From assembly GCA_028994555.1 (NCBI GenBank), contig JARDVN010000002.1, positions 62,001 to 126,000 on the forward strand: a stretch of DNA of 64,000 nt. Reading direction: 5' to 3'. Every line of letters begins with the position of its first letter. Positions within the stretch are counted from its first letter, which is position 1. The notes under the pieces are model-generated. The model saw only the letters and a list, made by a program, of their open reading frames with translations. It did not search any database and was not told the DNA's origin. The position numbers and the translations under genes are program-made. Shown one piece after another: positions 14,039-53,958 of the stretch. The stretch is from Citrobacter amalonaticus. GTDB taxonomy: Bacteria; Pseudomonadota; Gammaproteobacteria; Enterobacterales; Enterobacteriaceae.

Positions 14039-14720
14039 GTGCCGCGTTCCAGGCGGCGACTATGAGGGCTATGTCGATGCCCATGTGCGCCGGCTGGAGG
14101 CGCTACGCCGGGCCGGTATCGTCGAGCGGATCGACGCCGACCAATGGCGCATCCCCGATGATCTGGTCAGCCGTGCCGCCGCCCATGACGCCGGCCGAGA
14201 CAGTCAGGCCAGCGTTCGCGTCCTTTCCCCGGTCGATCTGAACAAACAGATCGGATCGGACGGCGCGACCTGGCTGGACCGGCGGCTGATCCACGGCGAG
14301 ACGGCCGACCTTGCGCCAACCGGCTTCGGGCAACAAGTCCGCGAAGCCATGGACCAGCGCCGCGAGCACCATATCGAACAGGGCGACGCCACCCGCAGCC
14401 GGGACAGCCGCGTCTTCTACCGGCGCAACCTTCTCGCCATCCTGCGGGAGCGCGAGGTAGCCGGCGTCGGATCGGATATGGCTTTGAGTAAGGGCCTGCC
14501 GTTCCGCGCCGCCACGGACGGCGAGAGCGTCAGCGGCAAGTTTACCGGAACCGTGCATCTATCGAGCGGCAAGTTCGCCGTGGTCGAGAAATCCCATGAG
14601 TTCACCCTTGTCCCGTGGCGGCCGATCATCGACCGCCAACTCGGCCGCGAGGTTATGGGCATCGTGCAGGGCGGGTCGGTGTCGTGGCAGTTAGGGCGGC
14701 AGAGGGGGCTGGAACGCTGA
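14039..14720 (+). pseudogene. VirD2-like relaxase, C-terminal fragment
   Basis: From the ISCR2 boundary the frame encodes ~225 residues (VPGGDYEGYVDAHVRRLEAL...GLPFRAATDGESVSGKFTG...) that match the DUF3363 C-terminal region of VirD2-type relaxases commonly found before floR. The catalytic N-terminal domain is missing, so it cannot act as a relaxase. Confidence 0.75.
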
Positions 14721-14800
14721 GTGCGCCCATGCCGCATTGCGAAGCAAAAGATAATCGGATAAAATGTAGCAATTCATATTCGTAAGCGTGGAGTAATCAG

Positions 14801-14830
14801 ATGGGAAATTCCAAGTCAGCAGACAAGTAA
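14801..14830 (+). CDS. Leader peptide MGNSKSADK upstream of floR
   Basis: A nine-codon ORF preceded by GGAG and followed at once by a 10-bp hairpin. SKSADK resembles the SKNADK of the cmlA leader and other drug-sensing leaders of phenicol resistance genes, where chloramphenicol stalls the ribosome. The functional role at floR is inferred. Confidence 0.6.
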   Translation: MGNSKSADK

Positions 14831-14859
14831 GCCGCAACAACCAGTATTGTTGTTGCGGC
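14831..14859 (+). promoter_or_regulatory. Attenuator hairpin between leader peptide and floR
   Basis: GCCGCAACAA (14831-14840) and TTGTTGCGGC (14850-14859) form a perfect 10-bp stem directly after the leader stop codon. It has no T tract, so translational or structural attenuation is more likely than termination. The floR ribosome site GAGGG (about 14922-14926) is not in this stem; a further structure would be needed to mask it. Confidence 0.5.
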
Positions 14860-14936
14860 GCTCTGTAAGGCTAGTCTCATCTGATTGCTGACGAGCAGAC
14901 GTCGCCCGGTATTCCTTAATCGAGGGTTGATTCGTC

Positions 14937-16151
14937 ATGACCACCACACGCCCCGCGTGGGCCTATACGCTGCCGGCAGCACTGCTGCTGATGGCTCCTT
15001 TCGACATCCTCGCTTCACTGGCGATGGATATTTATCTCCCTGTCGTTCCAGCGATGCCCGGCATCCTGAACACGACGCCCGCTATGATCCAACTCACGTT
15101 GAGCCTCTATATGGTGATGCTCGGCGTGGGCCAGGTGATTTTTGGTCCGCTCTCAGACAGAATCGGGCGACGGCCAATTCTACTTGCGGGCGCAACGGCT
15201 TTCGTCATTGCGTCTCTGGGAGCAGCTTGGTCTTCAACTGCACCGGCCTTTGTCGCTTTCCGTCTACTTCAAGCAGTGGGCGCGTCGGCCATGCTGGTGG
15301 CGACGTTCGCGACGGTTCGCGACGTTTATGCCAACCGTCCTGAGGGTGTCGTCATCTACGGCCTTTTCAGTTCGATGCTGGCGTTCGTGCCTGCGCTCGG
15401 CCCTATCGCCGGAGCATTGATCGGCGAGTTCTTGGGATGGCAGGCGATATTCATTACTTTGGCTATACTGGCGATGCTCGCACTCCTAAATGCGGGTTTC
15501 AGGTGGCACGAAACCCGCCCTCTGGATCAAGTCAAGACGCGCCGATCTGTCTTGCCGATCTTCGCGAGTCCGGCTTTTTGGGTTTACACTGTCGGCTTTA
15601 GCGCCGGTATGGGCACCTTCTTCGTCTTCTTCTCGACGGCTCCCCGTGTGCTCATAGGCCAAGCGGAATATTCCGAGATCGGATTCAGCTTTGCCTTCGC
15701 CACTGTCGCGCTTGTAATGATCGTGACAACCCGTTTCGCGAAGTCCTTTGTCGCCAGATGGGGCATCGCAGGATGCGTGGCGCGTGGGATGGCGTTGCTT
15801 GTTTGCGGAGCGGTCCTGTTGGGGATCGGCGAACTTTACGGCTCGCCGTCATTCCTCACCTTCATCCTACCGATGTGGGTTGTCGCGGTCGGTATTGTCT
15901 TCACGGTGTCCGTTACCGCGAACGGCGCTTTGGCAGAGTTCGACGACATCGCGGGATCAGCGGTCGCGTTCTACTTCTGCGTTCAAAGCCTGATAGTCAG
16001 CATTGTCGGGACATTGGCGGTGGCACTTTTAAACGGTGACACAGCGTGGCCCGTGATCTGTTACGCCACGGCGATGGCGGTACTGGTTTCGTTGGGGCTG
16101 GTGCTCCTTCGGCTCCGTGGGGCTGCCACCGAGAAGTCGCCAGTCGTCTAA
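14937..16151 (+). CDS. floR: FloR chloramphenicol/florfenicol exporter
   Basis: A 404-residue major-facilitator (DHA1) exporter with about 12 hydrophobic segments; GPLSDRIGRRP after TM2 is the MFS motif A and RLLQAVGASA the TM4 motif. It pumps phenicols, including florfenicol, out across the inner membrane. The gene is intact. Neighbours virD2 fragment and lysR fragment are the standard floR cassette. Confidence 0.96.
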   Translation: MTTTRPAWAYTLPAALLLMAPFDILASLAMDIYLPVVPAMPGILNTTPAMIQLTLSLYMVMLGVGQVIFGPLSDRIGRRPILLAGATAFVIASLGAAWSSTAPAFVAFRLLQAVGASAMLVATFATVRDVYANRPEGVVIYGLFSSMLAFVPALGPIAGALIGEFLGWQAIFITLAILAMLALLNAGFRWHETRPLDQVKTRRSVLPIFASPAFWVYTVGFSAGMGTFFVFFSTAPRVLIGQAEYSEIGFSFAFATVALVMIVTTRFAKSFVARWGIAGCVARGMALLVCGAVLLGIGELYGSPSFLTFILPMWVVAVGIVFTVSVTANGALAEFDDIAGSAVAFYFCVQSLIVSIVGTLAVALLNGDTAWPVICYATAMAVLVSLGLVLLRLRGAATEKSPVV

Positions 16152-52853: not shown

Positions 52854-53387
52854 ATGCGCATTTTGCCCGTCGTTGCTGCAGTTACGGCTGCATTCCTGGT
52901 TGTCGCGTGTAGCTCCCCGACACCGCCGAAAGGCGTTACCGTGGTAAATAACTTTGATGCCAAACGCTATCTGGGAACCTGGTATGAAATTGCGCGCTTC
53001 GACCATCGTTTCGAGCGCGGATTGGATAAAGTGACCGCAACATACAGCTTGCGCGACGACGGCGGCATCAACGTTATTAACAAGGGCTATAACCCTGACA
53101 GGGAGATGTGGCAGAAAACGGAAGGGAAAGCCTATTTCACCGGCGACCCAAGCAGAGCCGCGCTTAAGGTTTCTTTTTTCGGCCCCTTCTATGGCGGGTA
53201 TAACGTAATTGCACTCGACCGGGAATATCGTCACGCGCTGGTTTGTGGTCCGGATCGCGACTACCTGTGGATCCTTTCACGGACCCCTACTATTTCAGAT
53301 GAAATGAAACAGCAAATGTTAGCCATCGCGACCCGGGAAGGGTTTGAAGTGAATAAACTGATTTGGGTGAAACAGCCTGGCGCTTAG
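52854..53387 (+). CDS. blc: Blc, outer-membrane lipocalin
   Basis: 177 residues with lipobox FLVVACSS, lipocalin motif [11 protein letters not shown] and the later [14 protein letters not shown]. Binds lipids in the outer membrane. It comes from the Citrobacter ampC locus and has been carried along with blaCMY. Intact. Confidence 0.95.
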
Positions 53388-53701
53388 TGAGTGCTCAGCT
53401 TCAGACCAATAATGCCAGCAACGATCAGCCCAAGGCTCAGCAAACGTGCCGGGCTGGCAGACTCACCCAGCAGCAAAATCCCTGTAATGGCCGCCCCAAC
53501 AGCGCCAATACCGGTCCAGACCGCATAAGCGGTTCCTACAGGCAACGTGCGCATTGCCCAAGAGAGCATGGCGATACTGACGATCATCGCCGCAATAGTG
53601 ATAATGCTTGGCGTAAGACGCGTAAAACCGTGGGTGTATTTCAGGCCAATCGCCCAGACAACTTCGAGCAAACCTGCAATTAATAAAACGATCCAGGACA
53701 T
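53384..53701 (-). CDS. sugE: SugE (Gdx), small multidrug resistance-family protein
   Basis: 105 residues with four TM segments and the SMR glutamate ([17 protein letters not shown], Glu13). The Gdx subgroup exports guanidinium and some quaternary ammonium compounds. Convergent with blc, overlapping by 4 nt. Intact passenger gene. Confidence 0.95.
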
Positions 53702-53958
53702 ATCAGGCTCCAGAACAATGGGGCCGTCCCCGGTGAAAGAAGCGTTTGCAGGTCGTCCTGCAAAGCTAATGTGTGAAATGGCATTTTTGCCCGGAAGAAA
53801 ATGAATTTCAACCTTTTTTATTCACCGCCTGCTAAAAGCAAGAATTAAGCATAATTAGCGGCGTAGTTCCCGCATTTGGCACTCATCGGAGTTCTCTATG
53901 ATGAAGGGCTTTCTGAAACCAGAAAGTCGATTGCCCCTCTTCTGAATGCGAAACGTTT

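What the first reader, a model, noticed from the sequence alone, without database searches (positions are those of the whole stretch)
14801..14859. Phenicol-type leader peptide and hairpin before floR
A well-spaced nine-codon ORF MGNSKSADK closely resembles the SKNADK leader that controls cmlA by chloramphenicol-induced stalling, and it is followed at once by a perfect 10-bp stem. This suggests that floR, usually regarded as constitutive, is inducible.
Basis: partly seen in the sequence, partly recalled or inferred. Interest (0 to 1): 0.75.

Follow-up and report, generated by a model that had tools for sequence, protein, structure and literature searches.

The report
Drug-sensing leader switch before floR
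Just before the florfenicol-resistance gene floR lies a tiny peptide gene followed by folding RNA that probably turns the gene on when the drug stalls a ribosome there; others had already described the peptide and first hairpin, and the comparison of relatives made here suggests how that distant hairpin reaches the gene's start.

Summary
In detail: a nine-codon ORF MGNSKSADK (14801-14830), followed at once by a perfect 11-bp (not 10-bp) hairpin (14831-14859), 77 nt before floR (14937). It is not new: PMC5890775 and PMC8256890 describe this ORF and hairpin as a putative translational attenuator and report more floR mRNA with phenicols, but leave the mechanism open because the hairpin does not reach the floR ribosome site. 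Comparing relatives supplies a likely link, a four-arm switch: 1:2 is the known hairpin; 3:4 hides the floR SD and start codon; 2:3 is the alternative. Arms 2:3 and 3:4 co-vary across relatives; control pairings do not. In 398 genomes a model of the element had 14 strong hits, the same 14 places as the FloR/CmlA-clade pump genes. The residue penultimate in the predicted stalled peptide is Ala, Ser or Thr in 39 of 39 distinct leaders, which chloramphenicol stalling favours. Folding predicts that stalling cuts the cost of opening the floR start site from about 8 to 4 kcal/mol. So floR is most likely inducible, cmlA-like. Stalling and protein-level induction were not tested.

The parts
14737..14765 (+). 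Promoter-like site TTGCGA-17-TAAAAT
   Evidence: 9 of 12 consensus matches, mean 0.1 in shuffles; a consensus match only. PMC10866021 (abstract) reports two putative floR promoters.
14788..14793 (+). Shine-Dalgarno site of the leader (GTGGAG)
   Evidence: Sequence; 7 nt before the leader ATG
14801..14830 (+). Leader ORF MGNSKSADK with stop TAA; predicted stall with Asp8 codon (14822-14824) in the P site and Ala7 penultimate
   Evidence: stall position inferred from the phenicol rule and from cmlA
14831..14859 (+). Hairpin 1:2, perfect 11 bp (arm 1 14831-14841, arm 2 14849-14859)
   Evidence: (98.9% of cells paired in 41 leaders)
14855..14866 (+). Arm 2 as used in the alternative stem 2:3 (GCGGCGCUCUGU)
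14895..14905 (+). Arm 3 (GCAGACGUCGC), partner of arm 2 in 2:3; its 3' part lies inside stem 3:4
14889..14937 (+). Hairpin 3:4: outer helix UGACGA 14889-14894 with UCGUCA 14932-14937 (touches the floR start codon); inner helix about 14902-14910 with 14919-14926 (covers the SD)
   Evidence: the inner helix of this allele lacks one conserved pair
14922..14926 (+). floR Shine-Dalgarno site GAGGG
   Evidence: Sequence
14937..16151 (+). floR, 404-aa phenicol efflux pump of the major facilitator superfamily
   Evidence: annotated floR in the matching plasmid records listed

Best explanation
A cmlA-type translational attenuator. Without drug, ribosomes finish the nine-codon leader, hairpin 1:2 forms, and hairpin 3:4 pairs with the floR Shine-Dalgarno site and start codon, keeping translation low. 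A phenicol stalls the ribosome with Asp8 in the P site and Ala7 penultimate; its footprint covers arm 1. Arm 2 then pairs with arm 3, hairpin 3:4 opens, and floR is translated. Shown by sequence comparison: the leader, the conserved stall motif, and co-variation of 2:3 and 3:4. Shown by folding only: lower cost of opening the start site after stalling. Published by others: more floR mRNA with florfenicol or chloramphenicol. Inferred: stalling, ribosome masking of arm 1, and control at translation.
For: Leader and hairpin shared with cmlA and by 80 of 85 loci. Arm-swap test on 29 leaders under 90% alike: own 2:3 better than all but 10 of 20000 permutations, own inner 3:4 better than all 20000; controls 1:3, 2:4, 1:4 show nothing; with 17 leaders under 80% alike, 97 and 0 of 20000 (earlier runs searches agree). 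Cells paired on the alignment: 93.9% (2:3), 87.1% (3:4). Start-site opening cost falls from 8.4 (7.6 with the leader included) to 3.9 kcal/mol for the window and is lower in 47 of 50 leaders; with the sequence after hairpin 1:2 shuffled the mean change is -0.2 against 4.4 real, real larger in 48 of 50. Penultimate residue of the predicted stalled peptide A 29, S 6, T 4 of 39 distinct leader ORFs, matching the phenicol rule stated in PMC8987054 (passages). In 398 genomes the model's 14 strong hits are the same 14 places as the FloR/CmlA-clade genes. Induction of floR mRNA: passages.
Against: No experiment here. Published induction is measured as mRNA, and PMC5890775 notes no rise in florfenicol resistance of its isolate despite the rise in floR mRNA. 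The window allele lacks one conserved pair of inner 3:4, and a 4-bp hairpin still touches the SD in the induced fold. The floR2/floR-T1-like leaders L034, L039 and L049 show no predicted release and L001 almost none; L067 and L069 fail when the leader is included in the fold; L039 and L063 do not beat the shuffles. L068 and L070 have lost the leader stop before the stem. With crude fixed-offset arms the swap test was weaker (232 and 861 of 20000). Pair counts on the alignment are mixed: for 2:3 the number of pairs with two-sided change was reached by 147 of 500 shuffles, its covariation score by 2 of 500; for 3:4 the cells with two-sided change by 1 of 500, but further pair types by 496 of 500. 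Hairpin 1:2 hardly varies. Relatedness is controlled only by the control pairings.
Confidence: 0.8

Rival explanations
1. The leader acts mainly on the transcript: a stalled ribosome protects the mRNA or prevents early (for example Rho-dependent) termination, so floR mRNA rises and translation simply follows.
For: The induction reported in the passages read is at mRNA level.
Against: No intrinsic terminator on the + strand: 0 of 50 leaders have a T-rich tail after stem 1:2. The co-varying arms cover the start site, which mRNA protection would not need. Both effects may coexist.
Confidence: 0.12
2. The leader is a relic and floR is constitutive; any rise in mRNA comes from elsewhere, such as copy number or the neighbouring LysR-type regulator.
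For: One paper calls floR constitutive; five Bacteroidota copies lack the leader region (whether they are expressed is not known); a LysR-type gene lies next to floR.
Against: Leader, stall motif and both alternative stems are kept in relatives down to about 48% protein identity, and all 14 FloR/CmlA-clade genes found in the 398-genome draw have them. The constitutive claim rests on growth phases, with no drug exposure in the passages read.
Confidence: 0.06
3. The hairpin is a transcription terminator or insulator and its place after a short ORF is chance.
For: On the minus strand the stem is followed by TTACTTGT; 39 of 50 leaders have 5 or more T in 8 there.
Against: Those T letters are the reverse complement of the stop and last leader codons; L004 and L095-L097 have only 1 or 2 T there but keep leader and stem. 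No T-rich tail on the + strand in any of the 50.
Confidence: 0.02

Closest known systems
cmlA translational attenuator (Tn1696; Stokes and Hall 1991, known here only through passages of the review PMC8876359)
   Same: Nine-residue leader ending in ADK, stop directly before a GCCGCARCAAC stem, two alternative stem-loop pairs, start site hidden; homologous pump gene (about 50% identity)
   Different: cmlA is an integron cassette; its SD hairpin is ATCCTTTGTTCAAGGAGAT and its start codon GTG; it lacks the outer UGACGA/UCGUCA helix
Putative floR attenuator of ICEApl2/pAR060302 (PMC5890775) and of floR-T1, floR-T2, floRv (PMC8256890); passages read
   Same: A nine-residue ORF and a perfect 11-bp inverted repeat before floR: this is the same element
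   Different: Those papers stop at hairpin 1:2, note that it does not overlap the floR RBS, and leave the mechanism open; arms 3 and 4 are added here
ermC/ermB-type and cat/fexA leader attenuators (details recalled; named in PMC5418344 and PMC8876359 passages)
   Same: Drug-stalled leader ribosome frees a hidden start site
   Different: Other leader peptides, hosts and resistance proteins; cat and fexA attenuators overlap the RBS (stated in PMC5890775)

Membership tests
cmlA-type phenicol-inducible translational attenuator | Short leader ORF with its own SD upstream of the resistance gene | tested here: met
   synonymous codon variation with kept residues across 39 distinct leader ORFs. Translation itself was not tested.
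cmlA-type phenicol-inducible translational attenuator | Leader residue that favours phenicol stalling (Ala/Ser/Thr penultimate) at a fixed distance from stem 1 | tested here: met
   39 of 39 distinct leader ORFs; rule from PMC8987054
cmlA-type phenicol-inducible translational attenuator | Two mutually exclusive stems, one of which hides the SD or start codon | tested here: met
   Computational only: co-variation; folding; weaker with crude arms
cmlA-type phenicol-inducible translational attenuator | Common origin with the cmlA element | tested here: met
cmlA-type phenicol-inducible translational attenuator | Ribosome stalls on the leader with the drug | not testable with these tools
   Needs toeprinting; not seen for floR in the listings
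cmlA-type phenicol-inducible translational attenuator | Gene induced by sub-inhibitory phenicols | not testable with these tools
   Published at mRNA level: PMC5890775 and PMC8256890, passages; the 8-fold figure of Lang 2012 is quoted there, the paper itself is not held
Any Rfam release 15 family | Match at gathering score | tested here: not met
   the only match in the window is a Guanidine-II riboswitch elsewhere
Intrinsic (T-tract) transcription attenuator | Stem followed by a T run on the coding strand | tested here: not met
   (window) and 0 of 50 leaders

The most novel reading that the evidence does not exclude
The whole FloR/CmlA pump family, including chromosomal genes of environmental Proteobacteria, carries one conserved RNA element that is not in Rfam: a phenicol-stalled leader peptide and a four-arm switch that opens the pump's start site, with natural alleles that differ in how well the switch works.
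Probability: 0.72. Interest if true: 0.55.

Novelty: already known. Interest (0 to 1): 0.45.

Why it matters
floR is called the most widespread florfenicol-resistance gene (PMC11851438, passage); the window's form of the start region is found at 99% or more in 2049 of 2127 matching plasmid records. If floR is inducible, drug tests without pre-exposure and expression studies without drug can mislead. Two papers left open how a hairpin so far from the floR start could act; the four-arm model makes that directly testable, and it would place cmlA and floR control in one old family of drug-sensing leaders.

Tried and rejected
Hairpin as + strand terminator: rejected, 0 of 50 leaders have a T-rich tail. 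Hairpin 1:2 alone hiding the floR SD: rejected, it ends at 14859 and the SD is at 14922. Rfam scan: nothing at this place. Exact leader-peptide strings in papers: 19 papers hold one, 12 listed, none about floR or cmlA by title. Attempt to find the published floR-T2 sequence by its primers: not among the loci, so its reported strong induction could not be set against a fold. Swap test with arms cut at fixed offsets: weaker, probably because the cuts drop paired bases; kept in the report. Second draw of 385 genomes of the class of G400: the only FloR/CmlA-clade gene (E 1e-60 or better) was that of G400, which has the leader but had been chosen through it, so this adds little; one other genome had a weak match to the stem alone (3.3e-4). 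Alignment A2, and model R1 keep the two slightly wrong ends.

Full report
What is there. At 14801 a nine-codon ORF (MGNSKSADK, stop TAA) stands 7 nt behind GGAG, between an ORF that ends at 14720 and floR at 14937. The next base starts a perfect 11-bp hairpin (14831-14859; -17.7 kcal/mol, 0 of 200 shuffles as stable). cmlA5 and cmlA1 carry MSTSKNADK and MSISKNADK at the same place with the same kind of stem.

What is already in print. PMC5890775 (passages read) describes a nine-residue ORF and perfect 11-bp repeat before floR of ICEApl2 and pAR060302, calls it a putative attenuator, quotes an 8-fold rise of floR expression with florfenicol from Lang et al. 2012 (not held), and shows by RT-PCR more floR with 2 mg/L chloramphenicol, though with no rise in florfenicol resistance of that isolate. 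It also says that the structure does not overlap the floR RBS. PMC8256890 (passages read) repeats this for floR variants and says that it is not clear whether the structure takes part. PMC10866021 (passages read) calls floR constitutive from growth-phase qPCR. The listings, and the passages opened from them, showed no paper that proposes further arms for floR; for cmlA two alternative stem-loop pairs are reported (Stokes and Hall 1991, as told by PMC8876359, passages).

Relatives. FloR relatives were drawn from one genome per species (80 loci kept of 397 relatives) and from four plasmid records. Of 85 loci including the window, 80 have peptide and stem (L083 was missed by the script). The five without are Bacteroidota copies with other DNA upstream. 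L068 and L070, counted among the 80, have lost the stop before the stem. Nine further, more distant leaders came from unnamed whole genomes (L089-L097), with pumps 48-68% identical to FloR. Together these give 50 leader-to-start sequences after exact duplicates among the first 80 are merged to 41.

The leader peptide. Among 39 distinct leader ORFs (32 peptides) the fourth codon from the end, counting the stop, is Ala 29, Ser 6, Thr 4 times; the residue before it varies among seven amino acids, and Asp follows in 37 of 39. PMC8987054 (passages) states that chloramphenicol arrests best with Ala and less with Ser or Thr in the penultimate place. With the Asp codon in the P site that is this position. 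These sequences are related, so 39 of 39 is not 39 independent events; Ser and Thr do occur in leaders that otherwise differ widely, but no tree was built.

The missing link. Downstream of the known hairpin the relatives share two more arms. Arm 2 (14855-14866) can pair with arm 3 (14895-14905). Arm 3 otherwise sits in a hairpin (14889-14937) that holds the floR SD and touches the start codon. In a swap test, each leader's own arms were compared with arms exchanged among leaders. For 29 leaders under 90% alike, 2:3 beat all but 10 of 20000 permutations and inner 3:4 beat all; with 17 under 80% alike the counts were 97 and 0. Stem 1:2 gave 258 and 341. Control pairings 1:3, 2:4 and 1:4 gave nothing (8185 or more of 20000 each). 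Earlier runs agree (24 leaders; 30 leaders, before two start codons were put right). Arms cut at fixed offsets gave weaker counts, 232 and 861. On the alignment of 41 leaders 98.9% (1:2), 93.9% (2:3) and 87.1% (3:4 with outer helix) of cells pair. The pair counts are mixed. For 2:3 only two pairs show two-sided change, reached by 147 of 500 shuffles, while the covariation score is reached by 2 of 500. For 3:4 fifteen cells show two-sided change (1 of 500), but further pair types are reached by 496 of 500. Clear examples by eye: CCGCCGGAUG with CAUUCGAGCGG in L076 against CCGCCAAAUG with CAUUUGAGCGG in L079, and arm 2 GCGGUG with arm 3 CACCGC in L096-L097.

Folding. With the ribosome parked on codon 8 the cost of freeing the SD and start codon falls from 8.4 (7.6 if the leader is included) to 3.9 kcal/mol in the window, and is lower in 47 of 50 leaders by either reckoning (before correction gave the same counts). 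In the window it holds for footprints of 13 to 21 nt. Shuffling the sequence after hairpin 1:2 removes it: mean fall 4.4 real, -0.2 shuffled, real larger in 48 of 50 (not in L039 and L063). The leaders that fail from the stem onward are L034, L039 and L049, and L001 nearly fails; with the leader included L034, L067 and L069 fail. L001, L034, L039 and L049 carry all four floR-T1 screening and qPCR primer sites exactly. PMC8256890 reports floR-T1 mRNA only slightly raised by phenicols and floR-T2 strongly raised. This agrees with the model, but it is one comparison after the fact, and floR-T2 itself was not found.

Specificity. A covariance model of the element (R1) was run on 398 whole genomes drawn from the phylum of G001, with Infernal's stricter filters: 14 matches on the gene strand had E 2e-6 or better, and all 14 lie directly before a FloR/CmlA relative. 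A protein search of the same genomes gave 14 genes at E 6e-159 or better, then a gap to 1.4e-61; these are the same 14 places. Four of the 14 have a leader identical to one used for the model (L086-L088, L109), L085 is a close relative (pump 91% identical), and nine are more distant. Of the weaker hits (4e-6 to 1e-3), two are the reverse strand of the hairpin of the same elements (L110, L111) and the other eleven (L098-L108) have no FloR relative in the fetched flanks. In a second draw of 385 genomes only G400, picked because of its leader, had both.

Variation in the window's allele. GAGCGG stands at the SD in 33 of 50 leaders; the window and L008 have GAGGG, L001 and L054 GAGAGG, so the window lacks one pair of the inner 3:4 helix. 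The window's form of 14860-14945 is in 2049 of 2127 matching plasmid records and 1086 of 1090 matching E. coli records at 99% or more. What this does to expression was not tested.

Verdict. The finding is correct and largely already known. The added part is a mechanism that joins the known hairpin to the floR start, with comparative support, and the evidence that the element belongs to the FloR/CmlA family as a whole. Stalling and translation-level control remain to be shown.

Noticed in passing
L049:1866-2003: Comamonas testosteroni floR2-like gene has a cmlA-type leader (MSTSKNADK) and cmlA-like upstream DNA joined at the leader/stem to a floR2-type stem and gene: apparently a natural chimera.
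   Followed up: partly
L012, L014, L019-L021, upstream of floR: Five Bacteroidota loci carry near-identical floR with the leader and stem replaced by unrelated upstream DNA; in L019-L021 the match to FloR begins at residue 5.
   Followed up: no
L008:1859-2003 and L027: Six bases are duplicated in the loop of hairpin 3:4, like the tandem duplications that PMC5890775 reports for Actinobacillus plasmids.
   Followed up: no
window 53720-53764 (-): Guanidine-II riboswitch (47.2 bits) just before a 105-aa ORF at 53384-53701 (-) that looks like an SMR-type transporter (recalled; no family search run).
   Followed up: partly
window 14831-14859 (-): On the minus strand the floR hairpin has a T-rich tail and scores as a terminator, because the leader's end codons read T-rich in reverse.
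   Followed up: yes
L093: One unnamed-genome leader has a long insertion between arms 2 and 3, yet its start-site opening cost still falls in the induced fold.
   Followed up: partly
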